The notes below the pieces were generated by a model. That model was not told the DNA's origin, made no database searches, and worked only from the letters and a program-made list of their open reading frames with translations. The position numbers and the translations under genes are program-made. A stretch of 64,000 nt of DNA from Acidobacteriota bacterium. Its GTDB lineage: Bacteria; Acidobacteriota; Thermoanaerobaculia; Multivoradales; Multivoraceae. The stretch is from positions 1-64,000 of the forward strand of contig JAPOXA010000066.1 of assembly GCA_026707325.1 (NCBI GenBank). The letters run 5' to 3'. Below, one piece after another: positions 16,677 to 37,106 of this stretch (positions are counted from its first letter, which is position 1; each line of letters opens with the position of its first letter).

Positions 16677-17970
16677 CCGAGGCGAGATCGCGCCGGCCCT
16701 GGTCGCTGGCCAACGCCGCGTGGTTCAGGATGTTGCGCGCCATGGACGAGACTTGTGTCTCGGCATTCGCCCGGTAGATCGCGGCCCGCGCGCTATCCAC
16801 GTCCGCGCTCTCCGGCGCTGCGTGCCGGGCCGCCTCGATCAGGTGGCACGCGACCGCGTGGCGCCCGGCCGCGGACTCGGACCGCGCCGCCTCGATCACT
16901 CTCTCCACGCCGCCCGCCAGTTCGACCCAGGCTTCGGCCTGCTCCCTCTTCGTCGCCGGCACGACGTTGTCGAACTCGCCGTCCCACCAGCCGCCGTAGC
17001 GCCGCCAGACCATCCGCACCAGGAAGCTCGGATCGTCGTAGACCGGCTGAAGATAGGGCTCGTCCGCGAGGTCGGTCGGCGGAGTGACCGCCTGGAGCAC
17101 CTGGTCGAGACTCAGCCCCCTGTTCATCGCCGCCACGCTCTGTTCTTCGATCGACCGCAGATAGCGGGCCGTTCCGCCCAGTGCCCGGCGCACCCGGTCC
17201 GCGCCCAGGATCGGCAGGCCATGCCCCGGGAGGAGGAGCTCGGCGCCGAGCGGCACCATCCGCTCCAGGCTGTCCGCCCAGTCGCCGACGTAGCGCTGCA
17301 CCTTCTGCGGGTTGCCCGCGTTCGGCACCGCCCAGATGAACAGGTCGCCGGTGTGGAGAATGCGGCGCTCCGGAATCCAGGTCCAGGTGATGTCGTCCGT
17401 CTCGCCGCGGCCGTGGGTCAGTTCGAAGGTCAGTTCGCCGCGCCGGAAGGTCAGGCTGCTGCCGTACAGGACGTCCGGGTACCGGTAGCTGTCCGGCCAG
17501 CGGTAGTGCGGCGCGTCGATCGCGAACTGGCGGCGGTTGATCGCCGTGTTCCAGCCCAGGGTCGCCCGGTAGCGGTCGAAGTGGCCCGGCACCCGCTCGT
17601 GGGCGTACACGGTGGGTCGCGGCCAGCCCCGCTCGTCCGCCTCGGCGTCGAACGCGGTGACCGAGAACACGTGATCCACATGGTGGTGCGAGTAGATCGC
17701 GGCGACGACCGGCGTCTCCGGCCATTCCCTCCTCGTCTCCTCGAAGCAGCGCTTCACGTCGAGCAGGTGGCCGGCGTCGAGCATCACCAGCCCGTCGCCG
17801 CTGTCGACGACGTAGAAGCCGGCGATGCCCTTGAAGCCGAGCACACCGTCCATGAGCCGGCAGGAGCCCGGGTAGTAGCGATGCACCGGGTGGTGCTCGA
17901 ACTGAAGGTCGAGTTCTCCGCGCCAGGCCCGCTCGGCCAGTTCCAGGAGGTCCAGGTATTCGTCAGGCAT
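16669..17970 (-). CDS. MBL-fold hydrolase related to alkyl sulfatases
   Basis: The 433-residue enzyme has a metallo-beta-lactamase fold with the zinc motif SHHHVDHVFS (HxHxDH), a later metal ligand in LHTGDLFIW and another in LLLPGHGLPI. The region after it (YLQPVYDDPSFLVRMVWRRYGGWWDGEFDNVVPA) resembles the dimerisation domain of SdsA1-type alkyl sulfatases, with a helical C-terminus. There is no signal peptide. It probably hydrolyses an ester, sulfate ester or related bond. The exact reaction is unknown. There is no Shine-Dalgarno site. A minus-strand TAACGT box ends 8 bases before the ATG, consistent with a leaderless transcript. It is divergent from the DUF5916 pair and is coupled to the membrane protein downstream. 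Confidence 0.83.
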   Translation of the reverse strand: MPDEYLDLLELAERAWRGELDLQFEHHPVHRYYPGSCRLMDGVLGFKGIAGFYVVDSGDGLVMLDAGHLLDVKRCFEETRREWPETPVVAAIYSHHHVDHVFSVTAFDAEADERGWPRPTVYAHERVPGHFDRYRATLGWNTAINRRQFAIDAPHYRWPDSYRYPDVLYGSSLTFRRGELTFELTHGRGETDDITWTWIPERRILHTGDLFIWAVPNAGNPQKVQRYVGDWADSLERMVPLGAELLLPGHGLPILGADRVRRALGGTARYLRSIEEQSVAAMNRGLSLDQVLQAVTPPTDLADEPYLQPVYDDPSFLVRMVWRRYGGWWDGEFDNVVPATKREQAEAWVELAGGVERVIEAARSESAAGRHAVACHLIEAARHAAPESADVDSARAAIYRANAETQVSSMARNILNHAALASDQGRRDLASDE

Positions 17971-17978
17971 GGGGGCGG

Positions 17979-18029
17979 ACGTTACCGCAGCGCGGGCGGC
18001 GGCTGGACGAAGAACGCTGCTGTTAGCCT
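17979..18029. promoter_or_regulatory. Divergent promoter region, probably leaderless on both sides
   Basis: Only 66 bases separate the two divergent starts. On the minus strand TAACGT (17979-17984) ends 8 bases before the MBL-gene ATG. On the plus strand TAGCCT (18024-18029) ends 7 bases before the GTG of the DUF5916 gene. Neither start has a Shine-Dalgarno sequence. The -10-like boxes at this spacing are inferred, and no convincing -35 box was seen. Confidence 0.4.
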
Positions 18030-18036
18030 GCGTCCC

Positions 18037-20283
18037 GTGAAACGGAGCCTGCCCGCGACTGTGGGCCTGTTGGGTTTCCTCGCGGGCGCCCCCGTCGCCG
18101 GTCAGGAGCAACCGGAAGCCGGCGCCGAGCGCCCGAGCATGGCCGCGACCCGAGTGGAGCGGGGGCCGAACGTCGACGGCGACCTGAGCGACGCCGTCTG
18201 GGCCCAGTCGGAAGTCGGCACGAACTTCATCCAGCACGAACCGCTCGACGGCGTGCCGGCCACCGAGCAGACGGAAGTCCGTGTCGTGTTCACCGACAGC
18301 ACGATCTACTTCGGCATCACCGCCTTCGACGCCAACCCCGACGCGATCATCGCCAGGGAGATGGAGCGCGACAGCCGCATCTTCCAGGACGACTCGATCA
18401 TCCTGCTGCTCGACACCTTCTACGATCGGCGCAACGCCTACGCTTTCGAGACGAACCTGAACGGCGCCCGCACCGACACCCTCGTCACCGACGAAGGTCG
18501 CGACCTGAATCTGGAGTGGGACGGCATCTGGCAGTCCGCCGCGCGGCGGACCGGCTTCGGCTGGACGGTGGAGATCGCGCTTCCGATCTCCACTCTCCGG
18601 TTTGACCCGGCCGCTCCGGCCTGGGGGTTCAACGTGCAGCGCTACATCGCCCACAAGCGCGAGATGACCCACTGGTCGGGCCTGCCACGCGAGGTCGGCA
18701 CGCTCGGGCAGGTCGGCTCCCAGGTCCTGCCCGTCCACCGGGTGTCGATGGCGGGAGAACTCACCGGGCTCGCCGGGCTGTCCCAGTCGGCGCAACTTCA
18801 GATCAAGCCCTTCGTCATCGGCGACGTCAGTGAGGACCCTCGCCTCGACGTCGATCCGGTCTCCGACGGCGACTACGGTCTCGACCTGAAGTGGGGCGTC
18901 ACCCGCTCCCTGGCGCTCGACCTGACCTACAACACGGACTTCGCGGAGGTCGAGGTCGACGAACTGCAGACGAACCTGACCCGGTTCTCGCTGTACTTCC
19001 CGGAGAAGCGCGACTTCTTCCTGGAGAACGCCGGCATCTTCGACTTCGGTCCTCCCCACCGGCTCTTCTACGAACCTCCCGTGCTCAAGACCTTCTTCTC
19101 GCGCCGGGTCGGCCTCGAGGCGGGCGAGCAGGTCCCGATCGACTGGGGCGCCCGCCTGACCGGACGGGTCGGGGGCTGGAACCTCGGCGTTCTTCGGGTC
19201 GCGACGGCCGGCATCGCAAAGGAAGATGGCCAGCTTCCGGCCAACGCGTTCACCGTCGCGCGCCTCAAGCGCAACGTCGGCCGGCGCTCGTCGGTCGGCG
19301 CGATGATCACCGAAACGGCGCCCGACGGCGCGGCTGCGAACCGGGTCGTCGGCGTCGACTTCGACTACAAGCCCACGTCCACGCTCGGCTTTGGCGGCTT
19401 CTGGACGAGTAGCGGCGCCAGCGAGGAAACGGCCGAGGCCGGCGGCGCCAGCGACTCCGAAGAGGCCGCGTACGGCTTCAACTTCGACTACCAGGGCCGA
19501 GACCTGACGGTCTACCTCGACGCCCAGGACATCGAAGAGGAGTACCACCCGGCGGCGGGGTTCTTGCTGCGAAGCAACGTCCGTCACCTGAACCCGATGA
19601 TCCAGTGGTTGCCACGGATCGAACGGGGCTTCGTCCGCACCTGGTTCACGGAGATCAGGGCCGACTACTACGAGACCCTGGACGGCGGTGAGCTGGAATC
19701 CCGCCAGATCGAGATATCACCGATCGGCATGCGGACAACGAGCGAGGACCGCTGGCGCCTGGGCTATCTCCACGAGACCGAGAACCTGGTCGCACCATTC
19801 GAAGTCTCGCCGGGAGTCGTGATTCCGCCCGGCTACTACGAATTCGACGCTGTGCGGTTCTCCATCTACAGCAACCAGAGCCGCTTCTTCGGCCTGCGCT
19901 CCCGTATCGCCGTCGGCGACTTCTACACCGGTACGCAGGTGTCCGGCCGCACCACGATCAACTTCAAGTTCTCGAAGCACATTCAGACCGAGACTCGATG
20001 GGTCTTCAACAACATCGAACTTCCCCAGGGCGCCTTCGACGTCGGCCTCTACAGCCAGCTCGTGAACTTCACCTTCACACCGAACCTGCGGCTGAACACG
20101 ATCCTTCAGTACAACGATCTCTCCGGCGACCTCGGCACGAACATCCGCCTGCACTGGATCTACAGGCCCGGCTCCGACCTGTTCGTCGTTTTCAACGAGA
20201 ACTGGATGGCCGAAGATCTGCGCTACCGGCAGAGCACCCACCGCCAGATCGCGGTGAAGTTCACCTACCTGATCCAGCCCTAG
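18037..20283 (+). CDS. DUF5916 outer-membrane barrel protein with CBM9-like N-terminus (copy 1)
   Basis: The protein has 748 residues, with a signal peptide cut near PVAGQ. Residues ~35-210 match carbohydrate-binding family-9-like domains (VDGDLSDAVW, VVFTDSTIYFGITAFD, FQDDSIILLLDTFYDRRNAYAFE, WTVEIALPISTLRF). The rest is a DUF5916 region with many amphipathic strands (LALDLTYNTDFAEVEVDE, FFPEKRDFFLENAG-type block) ending in a beta-barrel C-terminus. An outer-membrane location with sugar or aglycone binding is inferred from the family. The start is GTG, without a ribosome site. The next gene is a close tandem paralogue 3 bases downstream, sharing long identical segments such as NLNGARTDTLVTDEGRDLNL. 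Confidence 0.88.
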   Translation: MKRSLPATVGLLGFLAGAPVAGQEQPEAGAERPSMAATRVERGPNVDGDLSDAVWAQSEVGTNFIQHEPLDGVPATEQTEVRVVFTDSTIYFGITAFDANPDAIIAREMERDSRIFQDDSIILLLDTFYDRRNAYAFETNLNGARTDTLVTDEGRDLNLEWDGIWQSAARRTGFGWTVEIALPISTLRFDPAAPAWGFNVQRYIAHKREMTHWSGLPREVGTLGQVGSQVLPVHRVSMAGELTGLAGLSQSAQLQIKPFVIGDVSEDPRLDVDPVSDGDYGLDLKWGVTRSLALDLTYNTDFAEVEVDELQTNLTRFSLYFPEKRDFFLENAGIFDFGPPHRLFYEPPVLKTFFSRRVGLEAGEQVPIDWGARLTGRVGGWNLGVLRVATAGIAKEDGQLPANAFTVARLKRNVGRRSSVGAMITETAPDGAAANRVVGVDFDYKPTSTLGFGGFWTSSGASEETAEAGGASDSEEAAYGFNFDYQGRDLTVYLDAQDIEEEYHPAAGFLLRSNVRHLNPMIQWLPRIERGFVRTWFTEIRADYYETLDGGELESRQIEISPIGMRTTSEDRWRLGYLHETENLVAPFEVSPGVVIPPGYYEFDAVRFSIYSNQSRFFGLRSRIAVGDFYTGTQVSGRTTINFKFSKHIQTETRWVFNNIELPQGAFDVGLYSQLVNFTFTPNLRLNTILQYNDLSGDLGTNIRLHWIYRPGSDLFVVFNENWMAEDLRYRQSTHRQIAVKFTYLIQP

Positions 20284-20286
20284 GGC

Positions 20287-22554
20287 ATGCAGAGACCCAC
20301 GCGAATCGCTCCGGCACTGGCCCTCATTCTCGTCGCGGCCGTGCCGGCAACCGGCATCCAGGAAGCAGCGTCCGGCGTCGAGCGTCCCACGATGGCCGCC
20401 ACCCGGGTCGAGCAGGGTCCCAACGTCGACGGCGATCTGAGCGACCGGGCCTGGCAGGCGTCCGAGGTCGGCAGCGACTTCATGCAACACGAACCGCTCG
20501 ACGGCGTGCCGGCGACCGAGCAGACGGAAGTCCGGGTCGTTTTCACGGACAGCACGATCTACTTCGGCATCACCGCGTTCGACGCGAATCCGGACGCGAT
20601 CATCGCGAAGGAGATGGAGCGGGACAGCCGCATCTTCCAGGACGACTCGATCATCCTGCTACTGGACACCTTCTACGATCGGCGGAACGCGTACGCCTTC
20701 GAAACGAACCTGAACGGCGCAAGGACCGACACCCTGGTCACCGACGAAGGCCGCGACCTGAACCTGGAATGGGACGGCATCTGGTCCGTCGCGTCCCGGA
20801 AGACCGCTGCAGGCTGGACCGCCGAGATCGCCATTCCCATCTCGACGCTGCGTTTCGATCCGGCGGCTCCCGCCTGGGGCTTCAACGTCCAGCGCTACAT
20901 TGCGCACAAGCGCGAGATGACCCACTGGTCGGGTCTGCCCCGCGAAGTCGGCGTACTCGGTCAGGTCGGCTCCGAGGTCCAGCCCGTGCACCGGGTGTCC
21001 ATGGCCGGCGAACTGACCGGGCTGACCGCGCTCAACCAGTCGGCGCAGCTTCAGATCAAGCCCTATGTCATCGGCGACGTCAGCGAGGATCCCCGCCTCG
21101 ACCTGGACCCGGCCACCGACGGCGACTACGGCCTGGACCTGAAGTGGGGCGTCACCCGTTCCCTGGCCCTCGACCTGACGTACAACACGGACTTCGCCGA
21201 GGTCGAGGTCGACGAGCTGCAAACGAACCTCACCCGGTTCTCGCTCTACTTCCCCGAGAAGCGCGACTTCTTCCTCGAGAACGCCGGAATCTTCGACTTC
21301 GGCCCTCCTCACCGCCGCTTCTACGAACCGCCGGTGCTCAAGGCGTTCTTCTCGCGGCGAGTCGGTCTGGACGCGGGGCGGCAGGTACCGATCGACTGGG
21401 GGGCCCGCCTGACCGGGCGCGTGGGCGGCTGGGACATCGGCGTCCTGCGGGTCGCGACGGCCGGCCTCGAGAAGAACGGTGGAGCCCTGCCTCCGAACGC
21501 GTTCACGGTCGCCCGCCTGAAGCGAAACGTCGGCGAGCGGTCATCGATCGGCGCGATGCTCACCGAAGCGGCGCCCGACGGGGAACTGGCGAATCGGGTC
21601 GCCGGTGTCGACTTCGTCTACAAGCCGGGCCCGAAGGTGATCTTCGGCGGCTTCTGGTCCAGCAGCGGCATCAGCGAGGAGCCGTCCGCCAGTTCCGGGA
21701 GCGCCACGTCAGACGATTCCGCCGACGGCGGCGAATCGGCCTACGGACTCAACTTCGACTACCAGGGCCGCGCGCTGACCGTGTTCCTGGACGCCCAGGA
21801 GATCGAGAAGGACTACGACACCAAGGCCGGCTTCCTCCTGCGCCGGAACGTCCGTCATCTGAATCCAATGGTCCAGTGGTTGCCCCGGATCGACCGGGGC
21901 TCCGTCCGCTCCTGGTTCACGGAACTGAACGTCGACTACTACGAGACCCTGGACGACGGCGAGTTGGAAACCCGGCGGATCCAGTTCTCGCCCATCGGCA
22001 TGCGAATGACCACCGAGGACCGGTGGCGGCTGGGCTACGTCCACGAAACGGAGAACCTGGTCGCGCCCTTCGAAGTGTCGCCCGGAGTCGTGATCCCACC
22101 GGGACGCTACGAGTTCGACACGATCGAGGCAGCCAGCTTTACCAACCAGAGCCGCCTGCTCGGCTTCCGCGGGGTCATCGGCGCCGGCGACTTCTACAAC
22201 GGCACCCAGACCTCAGGCCGCGTCACCTTCACTCTCCGCCTCTCGAAGAACCTGCAGACGGAAACCCGCTGGGTCTTCAACGATGTCGAACTGCCCCAGG
22301 GCGCCTTCGACGTCGGCCTCTACAGCCAGCTCGTGAACTTCACGTTCACCCCGAACCTGCGGCTGAACACGATCATCCAGTACAACGACCACTCCGGCGA
22401 CCTCGGAACGAACATCCGCCTGCACTGGATCTACAGGCCCGGCTCCGACCTGTTCGTCGTCTACAACGAGAACTGGATGGCAGAGGACCTGCGCTACCGG
22501 CAGAGCACTCACCGCCAGATCGCAGTCAAGTTCACCTATCTGATCCAGCCGTAG
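20287..22554 (+). CDS. DUF5916 outer-membrane barrel protein with CBM9-like N-terminus (copy 2)
   Basis: The 755-residue tandem paralogue of the preceding gene follows 3 bases after its stop. Nearly the whole length aligns. The blocks EPLDGVPATEQTEVRVVF, ALDLTYNTDFAEVEVDELQT, FYEPPVLK.FFSRRVGL and the last 60 residues are almost identical, whereas the signal peptide and the loop near residue 470 (a serine/glycine-rich insertion of about 7 residues) differ. This points to a duplication followed by divergence of exposed loops, which may alter ligand choice. A more distant third member lies at 41613 on the other strand. Function and location are inferred as for copy 1. The stop is followed by the promoter-like sequence of the helicase gene. 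Confidence 0.88.
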   Translation: MQRPTRIAPALALILVAAVPATGIQEAASGVERPTMAATRVEQGPNVDGDLSDRAWQASEVGSDFMQHEPLDGVPATEQTEVRVVFTDSTIYFGITAFDANPDAIIAKEMERDSRIFQDDSIILLLDTFYDRRNAYAFETNLNGARTDTLVTDEGRDLNLEWDGIWSVASRKTAAGWTAEIAIPISTLRFDPAAPAWGFNVQRYIAHKREMTHWSGLPREVGVLGQVGSEVQPVHRVSMAGELTGLTALNQSAQLQIKPYVIGDVSEDPRLDLDPATDGDYGLDLKWGVTRSLALDLTYNTDFAEVEVDELQTNLTRFSLYFPEKRDFFLENAGIFDFGPPHRRFYEPPVLKAFFSRRVGLDAGRQVPIDWGARLTGRVGGWDIGVLRVATAGLEKNGGALPPNAFTVARLKRNVGERSSIGAMLTEAAPDGELANRVAGVDFVYKPGPKVIFGGFWSSSGISEEPSASSGSATSDDSADGGESAYGLNFDYQGRALTVFLDAQEIEKDYDTKAGFLLRRNVRHLNPMVQWLPRIDRGSVRSWFTELNVDYYETLDDGELETRRIQFSPIGMRMTTEDRWRLGYVHETENLVAPFEVSPGVVIPPGRYEFDTIEAASFTNQSRLLGFRGVIGAGDFYNGTQTSGRVTFTLRLSKNLQTETRWVFNDVELPQGAFDVGLYSQLVNFTFTPNLRLNTIIQYNDHSGDLGTNIRLHWIYRPGSDLFVVYNENWMAEDLRYRQSTHRQIAVKFTYLIQP

Positions 22555-26629: not shown

Positions 26630-26851
26630 ATGACGTCCCCGAACCTCCCACCGAATCTCCGCACACCGCGAACCAGACCGCACGCCGGTCATCGGCTGCG
26701 CGGATGGAACCCCCGACTCTCCCAGCCTCCGGCCAGCGCCCTCGAAGCACGCCTGGCCCGCGCGTTCCACATGCTCGGCGCTCCGTCCGCGCCACTCGTC
26801 TCGATGCTGCACAGCCGGTCCACCGGCCTGGCGGGAAGGCGGCGGCGATGA
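26630..26851 (+). CDS. Possible small first gene of the peptide operon, unknown
   Basis: A 73-codon frame begins at an ATG with GGAG 7 bases upstream and ends in an ATGA overlap with the thioredoxin-like gene. The predicted product is proline and arginine rich, with one helical stretch (LEARLARAFHMLGAPSAPLV). It has no signal peptide and no double-glycine motif. The overlap geometry and position in the operon support a real gene, but third-position GC is lower than in neighbours, and a second open frame from 26617 runs in phase into the next gene. It could instead be untranslated leader. Confidence 0.3.
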   Translation: MTSPNLPPNLRTPRTRPHAGHRLRGWNPRLSQPPASALEARLARAFHMLGAPSAPLVSMLHSRSTGLAGRRRR

Positions 26852-27354
26852 ACCGGCGCCGTCTGGCCACCGCTGCCATCGTCGTGGCCGTTCTCGCCCC
26901 CCTCGGGGGTCTGCTCTGGTTCGAATCCGGGATCCGCGCCCGGCAGGCCCAGCGCCCGGAAGTCGGCGCGATGTTCCCCGCGCTGCCGGGCTTCGCGGAC
27001 GGCGAGACCCTGCCGGCCGCTCCCGGCCGGCTCCGGGTCGTGACCTTCGCCAGGGCCGGCTGCGGGAACTGTGACCGCACCATCACCGCCCTGCGGCGCA
27101 TGGCCCGGACCGAGGGTCCGACCTTCGACCTGATCGCGGTCGTCGCCGGCTCGGGTTCGCCCGAACTCGACGGCGACGGCGTCCACGCGGCCATCGCCGA
27201 TCCGGACGGCGCCGTCTCCAGGCGCTTCGGCGTCGTCCACGTACCGCTGGTGTTCCTGGTCGACGAGCAGTCCCGGATCCTCGCGGTCAGCACCGGAGAA
27301 CGTCCAGACACCGCCTGGCGCTCCTTTCTGGAATCCGGAAGCGATGCGCTCTGA
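26848..27354 (+). CDS. Membrane-anchored thioredoxin-like protein
   Basis: The 168-residue protein has a basic start (MNRRR), one hydrophobic segment (residues ~7-25) and a thioredoxin fold placed outside the membrane by the positive-inside rule. The redox motif is CGNC (Cys72, Cys75) in ARAGCGNCDRT, followed by the cis-proline region VVHVPLVFLVDEQ. The fold resembles TlpA/AhpC-TSA-like proteins. It would reduce, oxidise or shuffle disulfides in exported proteins. It sits directly before a C39 peptidase, with an 11-base overlap, and upstream of four peptides that carry two or four cysteines, so action on those peptides is a good inference. An in-frame extension to 26617 exists but would bury the membrane anchor. 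Confidence 0.8.
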   Translation: MNRRRLATAAIVVAVLAPLGGLLWFESGIRARQAQRPEVGAMFPALPGFADGETLPAAPGRLRVVTFARAGCGNCDRTITALRRMARTEGPTFDLIAVVAGSGSPELDGDGVHAAIADPDGAVSRRFGVVHVPLVFLVDEQSRILAVSTGERPDTAWRSFLESGSDAL

Positions 27355-27964
27355 GCGTTTCCCGTTCCGCCCCCCGCACGCGGCGGCCGCCGGCCTGCTG
27401 GTTGCCGCCGGTCTCGTGACGGTCGCTGCCAGGGCCCTTGGGCCGACCATGGACCGGCTCGCCTGGGCCGCCGCGCTCGACCCGTCGGCGCCGGCCCCGG
27501 GCGAGATCGTTCGCCAGCAAAGGCGCTCCGACTGCGGACCGGCGGCCCTGAAGATGGTCCTCGACCACTGGGGCATCGAGGACACGACCCTCGCCGAACT
27601 CGAGATCGCGACCGGAACCGGCCCGGACGGCACCAGCCTGCTGGCGCTCAAGAAGGCGGCGGAGGAACGGGGCGTGACGAGCCAGGGCCTCCGGCTTCCC
27701 GTCCAGCGGCTTCGCGACATCCCGCTGCCCGCGATCGCTCACGTCCACGGCGACCACTTCGTCGTCATCCGCAGCGCCGGCGACGAACTCGTCATCGACG
27801 ACCCTTCCCTCGGGCGGCTGCGCATGAGTTCCAGGACCTTCGAACGGTCCTGGGACGGCGTCGTTCTCGCCTTTACCAGCGGCCCGCCACCGATTCCCCG
27901 GACGGCCACGATGCCGTCCGTTTCCCCCCAACCCACAACCCTTGAAGGAGATAGCCCTCGATGA
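27344..27964 (+). CDS. Stand-alone membrane-anchored C39-family peptidase
   Basis: The 206-residue protein has an arginine-rich start, one hydrophobic segment (~13-33) and a C39-like cysteine peptidase domain. Cys64 lies in RRSDCGPAALKMVLDHWG with a Gln five residues before it for the oxyanion hole, His138 lies in HGDHFVVI, and Asp153 in IDDPSLG. C39 domains normally form the cytoplasmic N-terminus of bacteriocin ABC transporters and cut after double-glycine motifs. Here there is no transporter fusion, and the topology puts the active site outside the membrane. Three peptides with double-glycine-type motifs follow immediately. The gene overlaps the thioredoxin gene by 11 bases and the first peptide by 4 (ATGA). 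Confidence 0.85.
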   Translation: MRSERFPFRPPHAAAAGLLVAAGLVTVAARALGPTMDRLAWAAALDPSAPAPGEIVRQQRRSDCGPAALKMVLDHWGIEDTTLAELEIATGTGPDGTSLLALKKAAEERGVTSQGLRLPVQRLRDIPLPAIAHVHGDHFVVIRSAGDELVIDDPSLGRLRMSSRTFERSWDGVVLAFTSGPPPIPRTATMPSVSPQPTTLEGDSPR

Positions 27965-28278
27965 AACTCCGCATTGCACTTCTCTCCGCCTTGTTCCTTC
28001 TCGTCGCCGGAACCGCAATGGCCACCCCGACGGCCGGCGAGGCGCCGGACTCGGGCGACCTCGCGCTGGTGGCCACCTGGGACCTCGGGCCGGTCGCCGC
28101 CCATGACGGCTACGCCCTCCGGCCGGAGGCGCCGGTCCAAACGGCCTGGTACTTCCCGGTGCCCTGCGACGCCCCACCCTTTCCCGGGCCGGGCCAGCCC
28201 TTCCCGCTTCCTCTGCCGTTCCCGAACCCCTGGCCCGGTCCCACCGACCAGTGCATTCCCATCCCCCTTCCCTTCTAG
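27961..28278 (+). CDS. Secreted proline-rich small protein, candidate peptide product
   Basis: The 105-residue product has a Sec signal peptide (MKLRIALLSALFLLVAGTAM, cut near residue 21). The C-terminal 40 residues are extremely proline/phenylalanine rich, with FPVPC at 65-69 and a second Cys98, allowing one disulfide that closes a loop of prolines. No clear double-glycine-type motif is seen, unlike the next three peptides. A strong AAGGAG lies 10 bases before the ATG, which overlaps the peptidase stop. It is read as part of the operon. It could be a proline-rich antimicrobial-like peptide or an accessory protein. Nothing in the sequence decides between them. Confidence 0.7.
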   Translation: MKLRIALLSALFLLVAGTAMATPTAGEAPDSGDLALVATWDLGPVAAHDGYALRPEAPVQTAWYFPVPCDAPPFPGPGQPFPLPLPFPNPWPGPTDQCIPIPLPF

Positions 28279-28314: not shown

Positions 28315-28488
28315 ATGAATGTCACGTCAACCCTGATCGCGAACCTGCCCGAGGCAGGCCTCGCGACTGTCACCGGCGGAGTCGACTGGGTCGTCGACTT
28401 CAACTGCTGGGCGCTGGCGACCATGGTCGACAGCGCGTTTCCCGGCCTGGGCACCCTCATCGCCCTTCACTGCTACATCCCGCTCTGA
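28315..28488 (+). CDS. Bacteriocin-like peptide with double-glycine leader
   Basis: This 57-codon gene is preceded by AAAGGAAAG. The leader of 22 residues ends LPEAGLATVTGG, matching the double-glycine consensus at positions -12 (Leu), -7 (Leu), -4 (Val) and -2/-1 (Gly-Gly). The Glu is at -10 rather than -8. The predicted core of 35 residues (starting VDWVVDFNCW) is hydrophobic and has Cys31 and Cys53, which could form one disulfide as in class II bacteriocins. There is no Sec signal peptide, so export would need an ABC system, or the short leader may itself act as the signal. The adjacent C39 peptidase and ABC genes make it a likely processed peptide. Confidence 0.72.
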   Translation: MNVTSTLIANLPEAGLATVTGGVDWVVDFNCWALATMVDSAFPGLGTLIALHCYIPL

Positions 28489-28550: not shown

Positions 28551-28889
28551 ATGAAACCACTCACATTCCTCGTCGCCCTTCTACTACTGCTCGGCGGCGG
28601 TTCCGCTGCCTCAGCGTCGACCGGCCTTGACACTGCGATCAACACCGCCATCCCGAAACTCTCGCTTGACGGCGTTTCGCCGCTCACGCTGGCCGAGATG
28701 TCCGCGCTGACGGGAAGCGCACCTAGCTGGGTGCAGGCCGGCTGCGCCGCGATCGGCGGCTTTACCGGCGGACGCGGAGCCGTGCGACAAATCGCCAAAC
28801 AACTCGGGAAGCGGGTCGTCATCAGCACGGTGTGCCCCGTATGCGGAACCGCAATCACCATCGCAGCCGTAGGCTGTCTCTTTTTCTAG
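28551..28889 (+). CDS. Peptide precursor with Sec signal plus internal GS double-glycine-type motif
   Basis: The 112-residue precursor begins with a Sec signal (MKPLTFLVALLLLLGGGSAA). After a ~25-residue spacer comes LTLAEMSALTGS (residues 45-56), which matches the double-glycine leader consensus at -12 Leu, -8 Glu, -7 Met, -4 Leu and -2 Gly, with Ser at -1. The predicted 56-residue core has four cysteines (65, 95, 98, 109), a glycine-rich AAIGGFTGGRG segment, a basic KQLGKR segment and a hydrophobic CLFF end. The ribosome site is AGAAAGGA. Two successive targeting signals in one precursor are unusual and fit cutting by the adjacent membrane-anchored C39 peptidase outside the cytoplasm. Confidence 0.78.
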   Translation: MKPLTFLVALLLLLGGGSAASASTGLDTAINTAIPKLSLDGVSPLTLAEMSALTGSAPSWVQAGCAAIGGFTGGRGAVRQIAKQLGKRVVISTVCPVCGTAITIAAVGCLFF

Positions 28890-28952
28890 TCGGGGGGCCG
28901 CGCGAGAGTCAACTCCCGTGCTCCCCCATCCAACCCACGGAAAGGAAACCAT

Positions 28953-29249
28953 ATGAAGACACCAATCTCCGTTCTCGTTGTCGCCGCGGTCACGCTGGCG
29001 CCACTGACAGGGTCATTCACTGCGTCAATCGCCGACATCGGCTCGCAGTCGAGTCCGGAAGACACTATTCGCGTCATCTCGGACGAGACCGCGGCGAGGA
29101 TTGAAGGGGCACTGGCCCGGAAGTGGAAGTGCGCCATCACCTCGTTCTCAATTGGAGTCGGTCTGCTGACGATTGCGCCCGCGTTTGGCGGGGTCCCCGC
29201 TATCGCCGCACCCGCCTTCTTCAACGGCGCGGCGTTCTGCCTCATCTGA
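28953..29249 (+). CDS. Peptide precursor with Sec signal plus internal GA double-glycine-type motif
   Basis: The 98-residue precursor starts with a Sec-like signal (MKTPISVLVVAAVTLAPLTG). Residues 42-53, ISDETAARIEGA, fit the double-glycine leader consensus (-12 Ile, -11 Ser, -7 Ala, -4 Ile, -2 Gly, -1 Ala). Cutting there would release a 45-residue core starting LARKWKC, cationic at its N-terminus and then hydrophobic and glycine rich, with Cys60 and Cys96 near the two ends. GAAAGGAAA precedes the ATG. It is the last peptide gene before the first permease, 83 bases downstream. The design repeats that of the preceding gene although the cores are not alike, as in multi-peptide bacteriocin loci. 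Confidence 0.78.
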   Translation: MKTPISVLVVAAVTLAPLTGSFTASIADIGSQSSPEDTIRVISDETAARIEGALARKWKCAITSFSIGVGLLTIAPAFGGVPAIAAPAFFNGAAFCLI

Positions 29250-29332: not shown

Positions 29333-30991
29333 ATGACGACGACTGGAATGAGGCGGCTCCCAGCCCGCAGAATCGGCGCCTTATGCCATGCCTACGTAAC
29401 TGTCTGGAGAAAGACCATGCAGGAGAATCGCTCGACCGTTCTCCTGACCCTCCTCGCGATCCCGAACGTCGCCATCGCGTTCTTCCTGTCCGTCTTCCTG
29501 CCGCGGTTGATCTTCGGACTGGAGGACGCCGCGCTGCGGCGAGGGCTGCTGACGGTCGCCCTTGCCCTAGTGGCCCTCGTCTGGCTCTTTGCCCAGTTGT
29601 TCCTCCAGCGGTCCGTCACCTGGCTGCTGAACATCAGGGAACTCAGTCCACTTCCGTTCGGCTTCAACACCCTCTACCGGCTGCGGTTGGCAGGCTACCT
29701 GGGTGGCGCCTGGCTTCTTGCGCTCGGCTTGGCCGCGCCCTGGTTCGCCGTGACGCGGTCCAACGGCCTGCTCGGCCTGACGATGACGACAGTGGCTATC
29801 GCTCTGGCGGTCGTGATTCAGGGCCAAATCGTCTCCATCGTGGCGAGTCAGCGCGACCGGCTGGTCGAGGGGCTGTTCGGTTCGGCCGTCGTGCTCGCTG
29901 CCATCAGCGCCATCTACCTCGGACTCTACTGGGGGGTTCTGGTGAAGGCGGGCGAGTCGAGTCCCGACGACCTGCTGGGGTGGGTGAGCCATTCGGTCGC
30001 GATTCGCATCGGCGCCTTCACTCCCGCCGGACTCCTCGCCGGCATGCTGGACGACCCGGATGGCGCATGGCGAAACGGAGCTCGCCTTCTGGGCCTCTGC
30101 ACCTACGCCGCCGTCATCGGCACCTGCGACCTGGGGCTGCTGCGCAGGTTGCAGTTCGATTCACCCTCGGGCGCACCGCAGGTCAAACACCCGACCTTGC
30201 CGCTCCCGGCCTTGCTGCGTCGCTTGCGCGCGCTGTCGCCGGGCGGCGTTTTGACCCTTATCGAGATCGAAAGCGGTGCCAGAAACCGCGCTATCCGATG
30301 GTCGATGCTCATCGCGCTTGCGCTCTTCGGCTTTCTTGTCCTTGTAGTAGACGATCCGGTTGTCGCTGTCGCTGGTTCACTCACCTTTGCATGCATGACC
30401 CTCACCGGACACCGCGGCGAAAGAACCCTGCCGACGGGTCGTCTCTGGTCCGAGTCCTTCGCGCTTCCGGTTACTCCGGCTCGCATCCTCCGAGCGATGG
30501 CTCGCGCGCCGTCTCTGGTCGCGATCTGCTTGGCCGGTGCGGCGTTCGCCGTGTGTTTCTTGCAGTTCGGCTGGTTCGGCTCGCTCCATGTTGGCTACCT
30601 CGTTCTTCATTGCTCGGTCGCGATCTTCTACTCCGAAGCTGCCTTCGCGTGGATCGACGCGCGCTGGCAGACTCCGACTGGAGCAGTGGAACCAGACACT
30701 CGCGCAGGGAAAGTACTGACTCGAAACCTGCTGGGCTTCGGCCTGTTGCTTCCCTTCTTCCTCACGCTGTTTCTCTTCACGTACTACGAAGGTGCTCCGA
30801 ACCCGTTTGCAATGAGCATCGCCGGTACGGTCCACGCCGCCCTGGCCGTCGGAGCAGGGCTGGCTTTCCGTTCATCGACGAGACGCCTCGTCGATTCCCG
30901 GGGGCTTGACGCGCTCCTGGGACGGGACGACTCCGAGGCAGGCGCAGCTCTTCCGCCAGCCTCCGTCGACACGCCGTGCAGGAATGTTTGA
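29333..30991 (+). CDS. ABC-2-like exporter permease 1 of the peptide locus
   Basis: The 552-residue polytopic protein has about twelve hydrophobic segments, six before and six after a basic central region near residue 300. It has no ATPase motif of its own. Blocks VTWLLNIRELSPLPFGFNTLY and FTPAGLLAGMLDDP are shared with the two permeases downstream (VTWLLDLEDLLRLPVGF, YTPPGLVAGIVHEP), so all three are paralogues, this one the most distant. A permease role rests on topology, on paralogy and on the ABC ATPase at 34535. The precise family is not identified. The start has GGAAGAAG upstream. It follows the last peptide gene by 83 bases and ends at element B1. Confidence 0.75.
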   Translation: MTTTGMRRLPARRIGALCHAYVTVWRKTMQENRSTVLLTLLAIPNVAIAFFLSVFLPRLIFGLEDAALRRGLLTVALALVALVWLFAQLFLQRSVTWLLNIRELSPLPFGFNTLYRLRLAGYLGGAWLLALGLAAPWFAVTRSNGLLGLTMTTVAIALAVVIQGQIVSIVASQRDRLVEGLFGSAVVLAAISAIYLGLYWGVLVKAGESSPDDLLGWVSHSVAIRIGAFTPAGLLAGMLDDPDGAWRNGARLLGLCTYAAVIGTCDLGLLRRLQFDSPSGAPQVKHPTLPLPALLRRLRALSPGGVLTLIEIESGARNRAIRWSMLIALALFGFLVLVVDDPVVAVAGSLTFACMTLTGHRGERTLPTGRLWSESFALPVTPARILRAMARAPSLVAICLAGAAFAVCFLQFGWFGSLHVGYLVLHCSVAIFYSEAAFAWIDARWQTPTGAVEPDTRAGKVLTRNLLGFGLLLPFFLTLFLFTYYEGAPNPFAMSIAGTVHAALAVGAGLAFRSSTRRLVDSRGLDALLGRDDSEAGAALPPASVDTPCRNV

Positions 30992-31191
30992 CGGACGCCA
31001 TCCCAGCGCGCTAGCGTCCGTCTGTTGGTCGTCAGAGGCGCAGTGGGCCTGCGAGCCGGACCCCCTGCCAGACCTAGCCGCCGCCCCTGGGCTCAGGGTC
31101 GCTCCCTGCGTCGGGCAAGTCGGCGGGGGGTCTCGTTTCTCCTGCGCAGAGCGACCGATTCGGCCCGCCACCAGTCCAGGTGCCGGCCCAC
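30985..31191 (+). repeat. Structured intergenic repeat B, copy B1
   Basis: This copy aligns with B2 at 36889. Both start TGTTTGACGGAC, share GTGGGCCTGCGAGCCGG (31043-31059 here) and, exactly 54 bases after the start of that block, share GGTCGCTCCC. GTGGGCC (31043-31049) can pair with GGCCCAC (31185-31191), and GACCCCC (31059-31065) with GGGGGTC (31126-31132). A promoter-like TTGACG-N18-TAGCGT lies at its 5' end, overlapping the permease stop. It may be a promoter with a structured leader for the downstream genes, a small RNA, or a duplication scar. About 240 bases here carry no gene. Confidence 0.55.
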
Positions 31192-31230
31192 CTTTCCTCA
31201 GAGCCGGCTAGAGCGACACACCAGGACTCG

Positions 31231-32889
31231 ATGGCGACGTTCACGCACCCGGGTAGCCGGGCCGATCTGCTGCTGACGCTCGCGCGGCTCGCCTTGCCGG
31301 ACGCCGTGCGGCGGGCCAACCAATCGTTGACGGTGGCGATCCCGGTTGCCGTCCTGTTTCTCGTGTTCGCGACGGTCGCCACTCTGGCGCTGCTCACGGC
31401 GATCTTCGCCATCGAGAGCGACGTCCTGCGGGGGAATCTCCTCAGCCTGATCGCCTGCTCCGTGACGGCGATCGCGTTGCTCGCCCAAGTGCTGCTTCGT
31501 GCGCCCGTGACCTGGCTGCTCGACCTGGAGGACCTGCTGCGGCTTCCCGTTGGCTTCCGGGACCTGTACGTACTCCGTTTTGCTCTCAGCACGATCGGCT
31601 ACTGGCTCCCCGTTCTCGGTCCCGCCGGCGTCTACCTCGCCGTCGCAAGATCGGGAGGCGTCAGCGGAGCGCCGATCACACTGCTCGCCATTCTGAGCCT
31701 GGTCTGGATCTTCGGCCGCACCGCGGCGATCCTGTCGCTTCTCGTCAACCGCTCGGTCGAAGGCGGACTCGGCACGCTGGCCATGGTGGTGATCATGACT
31801 GCCTGCCAAGGCGCGATTCTCTTCGGCTCGCTGGCGCTCGGCGGCGAGCTCGATTCCGAAGGGATCACTCGGATGATCGAGGAATCCGCTGTTCTCGACG
31901 GCCTCGGCTACACGCCGCCCGGGCTGGTCGCCGGCATCGTCCACGAACCGGGGCCTTCGTTGCCGAATCTGGCGAGACTCGGCGGCCTGATGGCCGTTCT
32001 CGGCGCCTTGGCCGTGGTGGAGTACCGGCTCCTTCTTCGTAGCTACCTGGAGCGCCCCGGCGGTGACCGGCGAGTCGCTTCCGGGGTGCTTCCGCTGACC
32101 CGAATACTCCGAAACTCGCGCCGTCTCACTCCCATTGGAACTCTCTCGGCGCTCGAAATGGAATGCCTGTTGCGCCTCAAACCAGCAAGGCTGCTTCTGG
32201 CAATCGCGGCCGCCTTCGCCCTGGTGTGGATACCGGCCCAAGCCGGTCTCACTGTCGGTCTGGCTGGGGTCATCGGTCTTGCCCTTCACGGTTTCCGAGT
32301 CGAGAAGCAGCCGCCGACCTGCTACGTATGGAGGGAATCGCTCGGCCTGCCCCTCACAGTCCCCCAGATCTTCCGCGCAACCGGCCGCGCGCCCGGCGTG
32401 ATGAGCGTCTTCGTTCTTGCGTTCATCCTGGGTCTGACGCCGCTCGACTGGTTCGGCTGGGGCTTCTTCGTGGTTGCGTCCTGCCTGATGCTCGCCGGCC
32501 TCCTCCTGGCATACGCCGCACACGGCCTGATTCAGGTCTACTGGCCCCAACGCAGTGCCGGCCCGAGCCACGAGACGAATGCCACCAAGTTCGCGGCGTC
32601 TCTCCTCGTACCGCAGGTCGCCTTTGCTCCAGCACTCCTCTCCTTCGCCCTGTACATTCTCTACGCTCGGGAGCGTCTCAGCGCTCTCACCGCCGGGTTC
32701 ATCGCAACGACAGTCCTCCTCCTCGCCGCCGCGGCCGCATACGCCTCTCGGAGACGGCAGGTTCGGGTGCTCAACGCGCGCGGGACTGAACTCCTGCTGG
32801 CGGATCCGCCAGAAACCGCACCGGCAACGTCCGACCAGGCGCCCGACAGAGCGACTGACGGCACGGTGCGGAGGCCAGGCACGACCTGA
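31231..32889 (+). CDS. ABC-2-like exporter permease 2 of the peptide locus
   Basis: The 552-residue membrane protein has about twelve hydrophobic segments and is a tandem paralogue of the following gene, with long identical stretches such as LVWIFGR.AAILSLLVNRSVEG and RFALSTIGYWLPVLGPA, seen at DNA level as well. The shared VTWLLDLEDLLRLPVGF block links it also to permease 1. No ATP-binding motif is present. It probably pairs with the ABC ATPase at 34535 to export or release a product of the locus. The ATG at MATFTHPGSRADLLLT is chosen because the next paralogue starts at the same point. There is no strong ribosome site. Element B1 lies just upstream. The last ~25 residues are polar. Confidence 0.75.
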   Translation: MATFTHPGSRADLLLTLARLALPDAVRRANQSLTVAIPVAVLFLVFATVATLALLTAIFAIESDVLRGNLLSLIACSVTAIALLAQVLLRAPVTWLLDLEDLLRLPVGFRDLYVLRFALSTIGYWLPVLGPAGVYLAVARSGGVSGAPITLLAILSLVWIFGRTAAILSLLVNRSVEGGLGTLAMVVIMTACQGAILFGSLALGGELDSEGITRMIEESAVLDGLGYTPPGLVAGIVHEPGPSLPNLARLGGLMAVLGALAVVEYRLLLRSYLERPGGDRRVASGVLPLTRILRNSRRLTPIGTLSALEMECLLRLKPARLLLAIAAAFALVWIPAQAGLTVGLAGVIGLALHGFRVEKQPPTCYVWRESLGLPLTVPQIFRATGRAPGVMSVFVLAFILGLTPLDWFGWGFFVVASCLMLAGLLLAYAAHGLIQVYWPQRSAGPSHETNATKFAASLLVPQVAFAPALLSFALYILYARERLSALTAGFIATTVLLLAAAAAYASRRRQVRVLNARGTELLLADPPETAPATSDQAPDRATDGTVRRPGTT

Positions 32890-32896
32890 GGTCTCC

Positions 32897-34483
32897 ATGG
32901 CACCGATTGGCAAACCCGGTAGCCGGGCCGATCTGCTGCTGACCCTCGCGCGGCTGGTCCTGCCGGACGCCGTCCGGCGGAGCAAGCAGCCGCTGGCGGT
33001 GGCGATCTTCGTTGCCATCCTGTTCCTCGTGTTCGCGACTGCCGCGACCCTGGGGCTGCTTCCGGCGGTCTTCGCCATCGAGGGCGCCGCCTTGCGGAGA
33101 AACCTCCTGAGCCTGATCGCCTGCTCCGTGACGGCCATCGCGTTGCTCGTTCAGGTGGTGCTTCGAGTGCCCGTGACCTGGTTGCTCGATCTGGAGGACC
33201 TGCTGCGGCTGCCGGTCGGCTTCCGGGACTTGTACGGTCTCCGGTTCGCACTGAGCACGATCGGATACTGGCTCCCCGTTCTCGGTCCCGCCACCGTTTA
33301 CCTCACCGTGATGAGGTCGGGGAGCGTCGGTGGAGTCCCGATCACCCTGCTCGGCATCCTGAGCCTGGTCTGGATCTTCGGCCGCGCCGCGGCGATCCTG
33401 TCGCTTCTCGTCAACCGCTCGGTCGAAGGCAAGCTCGGCGCCCTGGCCCTGGTGGCCATCACGGCTGCCGTCTACGGCGCGATTCTTCTCGGTGGCATGG
33501 CCTTCGGCGGCGAACTCAATTCCGACGGGATTGTCCGGTCAGTCGAGGAATCCGCGGTGCTCGGCGGCCTCAGCTACACGCCGCCCGGGCTTGTCGCCGG
33601 CATCGTCCACGAACCGGGTCCTTCGACGTCGAATCTGGCGAAACTCGGCAGCCTGTTCGCGACTCTCGGCGTGTTGGCGATGCTGGAGAACCGGCTCCTG
33701 CTTCGGGGCTACCTGGAACGCCCCGGCGGCGACCGGCGTGCTGCTTCCTGCAGCCTGCCGGTGGCCAGACTGCTCCGCAAGGCGAAGCGTCTCACTCCGA
33801 CGGGCGTCCTCACGCTGATCGAGATCGAGTGCCTCCTGCGTCTGAAGCCGGCTCGTCTGGTTCTCGCGACGGTTCTGGGGTTCGCCCTCGTCCTGATACC
33901 CACTCTGGGCGGTTTCGCGTTGGGTCCGGCCGCGATTCTCGGCGTCTTTCTGAACGACCTCCGCGTGAGCAAGCAGCCCCCGACCTGCTACGCATGGCGG
34001 GAGTCGCTCACGCTGCCGCTCCCGGTCTGGCGCGTCTTCAGCGCGTCGGGCAGCGCCGTGAACGTGGTGATTCTTCTCCTGTTCGCGTTCCTCCTGGGAT
34101 TGGCATCGCTTGACTGGTTCGGCTGGCCGTTCCTTGTCGTCGCGATCTGCCTGATGCTCGCGACATTCCTCATGGCTACCGGCGGTTACAGCCTGATGCA
34201 GCTCCGTTGGCCTGGACGCAACGATGGGTTCATCAACGATCTCGACGGCGCCAAGCTCGTGGCCGCCTTGGTGGTGGGGCATCTCATGATCGGTCCAGGA
34301 ATCCTCTGCGCCGTTCTCTGGGAGCTCCTTGCAAGTCAGCGCATGACGCCGGCGACGGCCGCGCTCATCGCGGTCGGCGTACTGCTCCTCGCCGCAGCGA
34401 CCGCCCTGGCCTCTCGTCGAAGGCGTAGGGAGGTGCTCCAGGCCCGCGGCCGCGAACTCCTTCTCAAGGACCCGTCCCACTAG
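32897..34483 (+). CDS. ABC-2-like exporter permease 3 of the peptide locus
   Basis: The 528-residue polytopic protein begins 7 bases after the previous stop. It is the product of a tandem duplication with permease 2. The N-terminal half (GSRADLLLTLARLVLPDAVRR, LEDLLRLPVGFRDLYGLRF) is nearly identical and the C-terminal half is more divergent. It lacks the polar tail of permease 2. Two such subunits could form a heterodimeric transmembrane unit with the single ATPase encoded next. The substrate is not shown by the sequence. The upstream peptides are the obvious candidates, but immunity or lipid transport are alternatives. The gap of 51 bases to the ATPase holds its AAGGAAG ribosome site. Confidence 0.75.
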   Translation: MAPIGKPGSRADLLLTLARLVLPDAVRRSKQPLAVAIFVAILFLVFATAATLGLLPAVFAIEGAALRRNLLSLIACSVTAIALLVQVVLRVPVTWLLDLEDLLRLPVGFRDLYGLRFALSTIGYWLPVLGPATVYLTVMRSGSVGGVPITLLGILSLVWIFGRAAAILSLLVNRSVEGKLGALALVAITAAVYGAILLGGMAFGGELNSDGIVRSVEESAVLGGLSYTPPGLVAGIVHEPGPSTSNLAKLGSLFATLGVLAMLENRLLLRGYLERPGGDRRAASCSLPVARLLRKAKRLTPTGVLTLIEIECLLRLKPARLVLATVLGFALVLIPTLGGFALGPAAILGVFLNDLRVSKQPPTCYAWRESLTLPLPVWRVFSASGSAVNVVILLLFAFLLGLASLDWFGWPFLVVAICLMLATFLMATGGYSLMQLRWPGRNDGFINDLDGAKLVAALVVGHLMIGPGILCAVLWELLASQRMTPATAALIAVGVLLLAAATALASRRRRREVLQARGRELLLKDPSH

Positions 34484-34534: not shown

Positions 34535-35320
34535 ATGGAAGTAATCAAGGCAGAGAACCTGACCCGGTCGTACGGAGGCAACGTCGTCGTCGACGGCGTC
34601 GACCTGGACGTCCGGGCCGGACAGATCCTGGGCTTCGTCGGACCCAACGGGGCCGGGAAGACAACGACCTGGTCCATGCTGACCGGGGTGCTGAATCCCA
34701 CGAGCGGCACGGTCCGTCTGCTGGGCAGGCCGATGGACATCAACGACACGGACCTCAAGCAACAACTCGGCATCGTCCCCGACCACAGCGTGATGTTCGA
34801 GAGCCTGACCGGCGAGGAACTGCTGCTGTCGTATGCCCGCATCTACGGCCTGGGCCGCGAGGACGCCGGGCAGCGAACGGACGAGGCGCTCGCGGTCTTC
34901 GACCTCGAGGACGCCGCGAAGCGGCCGATCACGACCTACTCCCACGGCATGAGGAAGAAGATCCGCCTGGCCGCGGCGACCCTTCACGCGCCGCGGGTCC
35001 TGTTCCTCGACGAGCCGTTCGAGGGAATGGACGCTCTGAGCGCCCGCACCGTCATGTCCATCCTGCAGCAGATGGCCGAGCAGGGAGCAGCCATCTTCCT
35101 CACATCCCACATGCTCGACTACGTGGAGCGCGTGTCGACCCACATCGCCGTCATCAGGGACGGCAAGGTCCTCCTGTCGTGCTCCCGGGAGGAGTTCCGC
35201 GAACTACCCGCCGCCGAAGGGGAAGACGGCGCCGGGCGGCTCGAGAACCTCATTCTCAGTATCTCCAGGCGCGAGAGGTTCTCCCGCCTTTCCTGGATCG
35301 GCAACAGGAGTGCGACATGA
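34535..35320 (+). CDS. ABC transporter ATP-binding protein of the peptide locus
   Basis: The 261-residue nucleotide-binding subunit has Walker A GPNGAGKTTT (36-45), a Q-loop region near KQQLGIVPD, the signature YSHGMRKKIRLAAA, Walker B VLFLDEPFEGMD and the switch His in FLTSHMLDYVE. The signature SHGMRKK, in place of LSGGQ, is typical of ABC-2 exporters such as those for antibiotics and Na+ (NatA/CcmA-like). It is the only ATPase beside three permeases, so it must energise one or more of them. The stop overlaps the start of the first Yip1-like gene by 4 bases, which indicates coupling. A ribosome site AAGGAAG lies upstream. Confidence 0.92.
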   Translation: MEVIKAENLTRSYGGNVVVDGVDLDVRAGQILGFVGPNGAGKTTTWSMLTGVLNPTSGTVRLLGRPMDINDTDLKQQLGIVPDHSVMFESLTGEELLLSYARIYGLGREDAGQRTDEALAVFDLEDAAKRPITTYSHGMRKKIRLAAATLHAPRVLFLDEPFEGMDALSARTVMSILQQMAEQGAAIFLTSHMLDYVERVSTHIAVIRDGKVLLSCSREEFRELPAAEGEDGAGRLENLILSISRRERFSRLSWIGNRSAT

Positions 35321-36888: not shown

Positions 36889-37044
36889 TGTTTGACGGAC
36901 CATCGACCGCGCGGTAGCTTCTCGCCGTTGGTTGTCGTCGCGCCGTGGGCCTGCGAGCCGGGTCTCCTGCCGAATACAACAGTCGACACCAGGCGCCAGG
37001 TCGCTCCCGGCGCTCGGCGAATAGGCAGGGCGTTTCGTGCCCAC
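36889..37044 (+). repeat. Structured intergenic repeat B, copy B2
   Basis: This is the second copy of the element at 30985. TGTTTGACGGAC is followed by the 17-base block GTGGGCCTGCGAGCCGG (36945-36961) and GGTCGCTCCC (36999-37008) at the same 54-base spacing. GTGGGC (36945-36950) can pair with GCCCAC (37039-37044), and CCTGCC (36966-36971) with GGCAGG (37024-37029). The inner stem differs in sequence from that of B1 yet still pairs. TTGACG-N17-TAGCTT at its 5' end resembles a promoter. The 312 bases between the Yip1 gene and the next start hold only this element and a second promoter. Confidence 0.55.
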
Positions 37045-37106
37045 TGTGCATGGCGACCAACAAGGCCCGGCGCCAACCCTCTCTGCCTGCCTGAGCCGCG
37101 GCATGC

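What the first reader, a model, noticed from the sequence alone, without database searches (positions are those of the whole stretch)
28551..29249. Precursors that join a Sec signal peptide to an internal double-glycine-type cleavage motif
Two adjacent genes encode different cores but the same plan: Sec signal, ~20-25 residue spacer, then LTLAEMSALTGS or ISDETAARIEGA, then a cysteine-containing core. Both motifs fit the double-glycine leader consensus at -12, -4 and -2, with Ser or Ala at -1 (GS and GA are known variants). Two signals in series imply two cuts, the second on the outer side, which matches the topology of the neighbouring C39 peptidase.
Basis: partly seen in the sequence, partly recalled or inferred. 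Interest (0 to 1): 0.8.

Follow-up and report, generated by a model that had tools for sequence, protein, structure and literature searches.

The report
Peptides with two serial export signals
A family of small bacterial peptides carries a general export signal followed by a bacteriocin-type "double-glycine" cutting site, and sits beside an enzyme of the matching type that appears to work outside the inner membrane, which points to a two-cut export route that has not been tested at the bench.

Summary
P3 (28551-28889) and P4 (28953-29249) each join a Sec-type signal, a 20-25 residue acidic spacer, a double-glycine-type (GG) motif and a core with an even number of cysteines. On its own P3 is only moderately significant (p about 0.03) and P4 is not (p about 0.14). 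Relatives settle it. The C39 peptidase operon is present in all 21 genomes of the genus (sponge-associated Acidobacteriota), with rapidly changing cargo. Across 20 precursor representatives from 13 core clusters the GG signature recurs just before the first core cysteine (hydrophobic -12 in 18/20, acidic -10/-8, hydrophobic -7/-4, G-2 in 20/20, G/A/S/T at -1; p = 3e-9 against other G[GAST] sites). It is better conserved than the spacer in 5/5 families and stays with the core when the signal part is swapped. Other Acidobacteriota families repeat the plan, often with canonical GG. The standalone C39 has the full catalytic set, an N-terminal membrane helix and the LahT/PCAT1 fold. Best reading: Sec export, then a second cut on the periplasmic side by the C39. 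FapD (periplasmic C39, substrate unknown) and the Neisseria nap island are the nearest precedents. Cleavage, topology and antibacterial activity are inferred. Open problem: P2 has a GG leader but no Sec signal.

The parts
26839..27354 (+). Membrane-anchored thioredoxin-like protein (CGNC), TraF/Redoxin-like; probable partner for disulfides or for keeping the C39 cysteine reduced
   Evidence: Weak Pfam matches below cut-off, TraF E 1.6e-4, Redoxin 7e-4; next to C39 in nearly all genus loci; a redoxin-like ORF also precedes C39 in L127
27344..27964 (+). Standalone C39 peptidase (206 aa) with N-terminal membrane helix 12-44; catalytic Q58, C64, H138, D153
   Evidence: PF03412 E 8e-32; catalytic residues invariant in 23 homologues; model matches LahT 6mpz Z 21.4, rmsd 1.6 A over 129 residues; present in 21/21 genus genomes
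27961..28278 (+). P1: Sec signal plus proline-rich two-cysteine peptide, no GG motif; its signal/spacer is found fused to other motif+core units in L033, L037, L038, L041
   Evidence: negative control for the motif
28315..28488 (+). P2: 57-aa precursor with a 22-aa GG leader (LPEAGLATVTGG|VDW) and no Sec signal
   Evidence: orthologues in most loci of the nearest clade
28551..28889 (+). P3: Sec signal, spacer, motif LTLAEMSALTGS (residues 45-56), 56-aa core APSWVQAGC... (+5, 4 Cys)
   Evidence: core related to L056/L057 114-aa precursors (z about 6)
28683..28718 (+). P3 double-glycine-type motif (GS variant); predicted cut after Ser56
28953..29249 (+). P4: Sec signal, spacer, motif ISDETAARIEGA (residues 42-53), 45-aa core LARKWKC... 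(+3, 2 Cys)
   Evidence: weakly related to L058, L051 and L053 precursors (z about 5)
29076..29111 (+). P4 double-glycine-type motif (GA variant); predicted cut after Ala53
29333..30991 (+). perm1: membrane permease homologous to the two other permeases, grouping with those of the L056/L057 loci that carry P3-like peptides
   Evidence: Tree support 99/94, long branch; lower GC3 shared with P3 and P4
31180..32889 (+). perm2: permease homologous to perm1/perm3
   Evidence: No Pfam match; conserved in genus loci
32894..34483 (+). perm3: permease homologous to perm1/perm2
   Evidence: No Pfam match; conserved in genus loci
34535..35320 (+). ABC ATPase (DrrA-like), likely partner of the permeases for immunity or export
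   Evidence: PF00005 E 3e-30, drrA 214 bits below cut-off; 96-97% identical across the nearest genus loci

Best explanation
P3 and P4 are precursors of bacteriocin-like peptides that leave the cytoplasm by Sec and are matured in two cuts. Signal peptidase removes the N-terminal signal during export, leaving an acidic pro-segment that ends in a double-glycine-type recognition helix. On the periplasmic face the membrane-anchored standalone C39 peptidase binds residues -12, -7 and -4 in its hydrophobic groove and cuts after GS (P3) or GA (P4), releasing cationic, hydrophobic, Gly/Ala-rich peptides whose cysteines are paired with help of the adjacent thioredoxin-like protein. The ABC permease/ATPase set probably protects the producer or moves the mature peptide on. 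Shown here: gene order, motif conservation, C39 fold and catalytic set, cargo turnover, modular swaps. Inferred: the two cuts, topology, disulfides, ABC role, antibacterial function.
For: Cross-family motif profile matches the LahT150 recognition rule (hydrophobic -4, -7, -12; GG, GA or GS at the cut; PMC6363468, PMC10885120): (p = 3e-9; anchors chosen by eye on the G[GAST] before the core). L053 precursor matches bacteriocin leader models TIGR01847 and TIGR03949 exactly at the internal motif, below cut-off. Motif more conserved than spacer in 5/5 families. Signal/spacer swapped while motif+core stay together (L033 break at nt 136-148, motif at 154; L041, L038). Same plan beside TM-anchored C39 genes in other families, with canonical GG in L102-L105 and motif-bearing pairs in L127, the last found after the pattern was defined. 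C39 fold and catalytic residues. No C39-ABC transporter in the genome: only two C39 matches, both in short frames. All 21 cores have 2 or 4 Cys. Positive-inside charges, mean +2.8 before and about 0 after the helix. FapD gives a proven periplasmic C39 (PMC5557850).
Against: No cleavage data. P2, in the same operon, has a good GG leader and no Sec signal, so a purely periplasmic C39 needs another way to reach it. P4's motif is weak alone (Ala at -7). Family B lacks the -12 hydrophobic residue. Some TM-C39 loci have no recognisable Sec+GG neighbour (L106, L107, L109, L148). Charges do not settle topology in L102-L108. No outer-membrane channel gene was identified nearby.
Confidence: 0.72

Rival explanations
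1. The C39 domain faces the cytoplasm and cuts the GG motif before export; the N-terminal hydrophobic segment serves as a membrane tether rather than a Sec signal.
For: P2 has a GG leader without Sec; all classic C39 peptidases act on the cytoplasmic side within PCATs (PMC10885120).
Against: A cut at the motif would separate the core from its only export signal; there is no PCAT in the genome to export it; charges around the C39 helix favour N-in/C-out in the genus; FapD acts in the periplasm (PMC5557850).
Confidence: 0.1
2. The peptides are Sec-exported and C39-cut, but act in structure or signalling (Fap-like fibres, programmed autolysis like Neisseria Naps, or sponge-symbiont contact) rather than killing competitors.
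For: The closest characterised standalone C39 systems are amyloid export (FapD, PMC5557850) and autolysis (Nap island, PMC11798529). Operon present in all 21 genus genomes. Most type-I cores are neutral or weakly charged.
Against: Fast cargo turnover with a conserved apparatus, dedicated ABC permeases that travel with cargo, and cationic P3/P4 cores look like competition peptides.
Confidence: 0.4
3. The motif is a propeptide feature without C39 recognition; another periplasmic protease matures the peptides and the C39 gene has a different substrate (P2 only).
For: No cleavage data; P4 and family B deviate from the consensus.
Against: The positions conserved are the LahT150 recognition positions, recur in 13 core clusters, and occur beside TM-C39 genes in several families, including loci without P2.
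Confidence: 0.12
4. Chance: short Gly/Ala-rich proteins will contain GG-like words.
For: Single-protein p values are modest; 11 of 60 expected by shuffling without the position constraint.
Against: 36 of 60 observed against 5.1 expected with the position constraint; proline-rich Sec controls 0 of 20 under the rule without that constraint; p = 3e-9 across representatives.
Confidence: 0.02

Closest known systems
Pseudomonas FapD (Fap amyloid secretion), PMC5557850
   Same: Standalone C39 with an export signal, shown to be active in the periplasm; client proteins travel by Sec.
   Different: FapD's substrate was unknown in that paper and Fap proteins were said to lack canonical C39 sites. Here many precursors carry a clear motif. 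The window C39 scores higher with the NHLP PCAT model (82 bits) than with FapD (46 bits, cut-off 330). No FapF-like channel was identified.
Neisseria nap island (NapP/NapF, bacteriocin-like peptides), PMC11798529
   Same: C39 peptidase gene beside small GG-motif peptides, proposed cleavage in the periplasm.
   Different: The paper mentions no signal peptide for those peptides and suggests a holin-like protein may carry them across the inner membrane. Here a Sec signal precedes the motif and ABC permeases replace NapF.
PCAT/AMS transporters and class II bacteriocins or microcins (LahT, PCAT1, ComA, CvaB)
   Same: Same C39 fold and catalytic residues (Z 19-21), same recognition positions -4, -7, -12 and GG/GA/GS cut sites (PMC6363468, PMC10885120).
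   Different: Peptidase is not fused to a transporter; the GG leader lies 20-45 residues behind a Sec signal; predicted cut is on the other side of the membrane.
Two-step matured class II lanthipeptides (cytolysin, mersacidin), PMC10885120
   Same: Two successive cuts by two proteases, the second outside the cell.
   Different: There the GG cut comes first, coupled to export, and a serine or other protease makes the second. Here signal peptidase is first and C39 second.

Membership tests
Peptidase C39 (PF03412) | Family HMM above cut-off | tested here: met
   110 bits, cut-off 22
Peptidase C39 (PF03412) | Catalytic Cys, His, Asp and oxyanion Gln | tested here: met
   Q58, C64, H138, D153 invariant in 23 sequences, aligned to LahT Q21/C27/H101/D117
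Peptidase C39 (PF03412) | C39 peptidase fold | tested here: met
   Predicted model pLDDT above 90 in most of the domain; 6mpz Z 21.4, 3k8u 20.8
PCAT / AMS bacteriocin exporter | C39 domain fused to ABC transporter | tested here: not met
   206-aa ORF; both C39 matches in the genome lie in short frames
Class II bacteriocin / microcin precursor | Double-glycine leader with hydrophobic -12, -7, -4 | tested here: met
   P3 fits fully, P4 except -7; family profile
Class II bacteriocin / microcin precursor | Leader at the very N terminus, no Sec signal | tested here: not met
   Motif at residues 45-56 and 42-53, after a Sec-type signal
Class II bacteriocin / microcin precursor | Antibacterial activity and cognate immunity | not testable with these tools
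   Needs assays
FapD (NF058616) | Model cut-off 330 bits | tested here: not met
   46 bits
FapD (NF058616) | Periplasmic location | tested here: inconclusive
   N-terminal membrane helix and positive-inside charges in the genus; not so clear in L102-L108
Sec substrates | N-terminal K/R, hydrophobic stretch, small residues at cut | tested here: met
   By simple hydropathy and reading; no SignalP available

The most novel reading that the evidence does not exclude
A distinct, phylum-wide peptide export route: Sec translocation plus periplasmic double-glycine maturation by a standalone, membrane-anchored C39 peptidase, with quickly exchanged cargo and matched ABC permeases, supplying the missing substrate rule for periplasmic C39 peptidases.
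Probability: 0.55. Interest if true: 0.72.

Novelty: new variant of a known kind. Interest (0 to 1): 0.62.

Why it matters
Double-glycine leaders and C39 peptidases are known almost only as a cytoplasmic, transporter-coupled pair. Periplasmic C39 peptidases exist (FapD), but the FapD paper states that this class had yet to be characterised and that its target was unclear (PMC5557850); the nap island paper leaves inner-membrane passage open (PMC11798529). Here dozens of natural precursors spell out where such an enzyme should cut, which makes the question directly testable. It also flags a peptide family in uncultured sponge symbionts that leader searches limited to the N terminus would miss.

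Tried and rejected
P3 was searched in 20 other genus genomes: no relative, so conservation had to be judged through the apparatus and analogous cargo. NCBIfam and Pfam give no name to the precursors. Plasmid search with the C39 returned annotated PCATs; the one unannotated top hit (Ensifer, L118) proved to be a 717-aa ORF, a transporter-sized fusion rather than a standalone peptidase. Family-level search: three same-family genomes outside the genus lack the C39. TM-C39 loci L106, L107, L109, L148 gave no clear Sec+GG neighbour. A strict motif rule misses family B and the L102-L105 peptides, because their -12 or -7/-4 residues deviate although GG is present. P4 to L056/L057 second-peptide homology is marginal (z 2-3). 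Literature searches for Sec plus double-glycine tandem precursors found no description; only open-licence papers are held. No fold was predicted for the cores.

Full report
What is there. The window belongs to a sponge-associated acidobacterial genus (relatives titled Holophagales, Thermoanaerobaculia, Ca. Multivorans; the sponge association is from general knowledge of these MAGs). An operon runs redoxin (26839), C39 peptidase (27344), P1 (27961), P2 (28315), P3 (28551), P4 (28953), three homologous permeases (29333-34483), ABC ATPase (34535) and two Yip1-domain proteins.

Is the motif more than chance? Related loci decide. The C39 is present in all 21 genus genomes, 90-96% identical in the nearest clade, yet P3 is in none of the other 20: the apparatus is fixed, the cargo changes. 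Reading the small ORFs between C39 and the permeases gave about 90 precursors. Leaving out the proline-rich P1 type and the Sec-less P2, most show Sec signal, acidic spacer, GG-type motif and a Gly/Ala-rich core with 2 or 4 cysteines.

Motif profile. In 20 representatives from 13 core clusters, anchored on the G[GAST] before the core, -12 is L/I/V/M in 18, -11 and -10 are polar or acidic in 70% each, -7 hydrophobic (A included) in 75%, -4 in 75%, -2 Gly in all, -1 G/A/S/T; other G[GAST] sites in the same proteins do not show this (p = 3e-9). The anchors were chosen by eye, but -12, -7 and -4 were not used to choose them. A rule-based count finds 36 of 60 precursors against 5.1 expected with a cysteine-position condition; without that condition it is 36 against 11.2, and 0 of 20 proline-rich controls match. 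The L053 precursor matches TIGR01847 and TIGR03949 at residues 41-70, below cut-off. These positions are those shown for LahT150: hydrophobic -4, -7, -12 matter, Glu-8 does not, GA and GS are cut (PMC6363468).

Modularity. In L033 the signal/spacer of a P1-type gene (nt 1-136, 77% identical) is joined to the motif+core of another family (nt 148-330, 87-90%), with the motif starting at nt 154; L038 and L041 show the same kind of join. In L047 a signal+motif segment is joined to a proline-rich core. Motif and core behave as one unit, signal and spacer as replaceable.

Wider occurrence. Outside the genus, membrane-anchored C39 genes in L102-L105 are followed by pairs of 80-85 aa Sec precursors with canonical GG, for example ...LGPNAEEAVMGG|NCDG and ...LVASVQTQLSGG|VSCD. 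A later search found L127 (another family of the order): redoxin-like gene, C39, Yip1-like protein, then two Sec precursors with MTGAESDSLVGA| and IGDPEAIELVGG|. Four other C39 loci had no clear precursor.

The peptidase. PF03412 at 110 bits; Q58, C64, H138, D153 invariant in 23 sequences and aligned with the LahT catalytic residues. The predicted model has a helix at 12-44 and a confident domain matching LahT with bound leader (6mpz, Z 21.4), PCAT1 and ComA. Flanking charges average +2.8 before and about 0 after the helix, which favours a periplasmic domain in the genus. No C39-ABC fusion exists in this genome.

Recent acquisition. P3, P4 and perm1 have lower GC3 (0.72-0.77) than the other operon genes measured (0.84-0.88). 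perm1 groups with permeases of L056/L057 (99/94, long branches), whose loci carry the P3-like peptides. Cargo and permease seem to travel together, as expected for cognate immunity or export.

Mechanism. Best reading: Sec export, signal peptidase cut, then C39 cut after GS/GA on the periplasmic side, with cysteine pairing. Shown: sequence features, conservation, fold. Inferred: both cuts, location, disulfides, ABC role, activity. Weak points: P2 has a GG leader without Sec; P4 and family B deviate; no outer-membrane channel found.

Known context. FapD is a periplasmic C39 with unclear target (PMC5557850); the nap island pairs a C39 with GG peptides whose inner-membrane passage is unexplained (PMC11798529); reviews list RiPP C39 proteases as PCAT domains (PMC10885120). 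I found no description of Sec plus double-glycine tandem precursors in the held library, which lacks most subscription papers. Hence: a new variant of a known kind.

Noticed in passing
window 30985-31173 (+) and 36889-37075 (+): Two ~190-nt noncoding elements, 70% alike, the only two copies in the genome, flanking the permease/ATPase part of the operon and kept in corresponding places in the genus loci (first copy about 77-96% identical). No Rfam match at gathering threshold; a shared fold keeps 98% of pair cells across 19 sequences with mostly one-sided changes and one clear two-sided change, so a structured RNA is possible.
   Followed up: partly
window 28315-28488 (P2): A canonical GG leader without any Sec signal inside an operon whose other GG precursors are Sec-type; how it would reach an outer-side peptidase is unexplained.
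   Followed up: partly
window 27961-28278 (P1) and orthologues: Conserved Sec-exported proline-rich two-cysteine peptide with a Pro/Phe/Trp-rich end, no GG motif, first cargo gene after C39 in most genus loci; role unknown.
   Followed up: partly
L103 5683-6555 (-): C39 peptidase ORF reads in frame through the following Sec+GG precursor, as if the enzyme were fused to its own substrate, or a stop codon was lost.
   Followed up: no
L047 9312-9773: Chimeric precursor: Sec signal, spacer and GG-type motif (ALELKAVSGT) joined to a P1-type proline-rich core.
   Followed up: partly
L059 (G000:C200:49900-50325): Second C39 gene in the same genome, 160-aa open frame, without redoxin, precursors or permeases nearby; function unknown.
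   Followed up: partly
window 16636-20283 and 20287-22554: Two adjacent, very similar long ORFs; the second has CBM9_1 and DUF5916 matches, so probably a tandem duplication.
   Followed up: no
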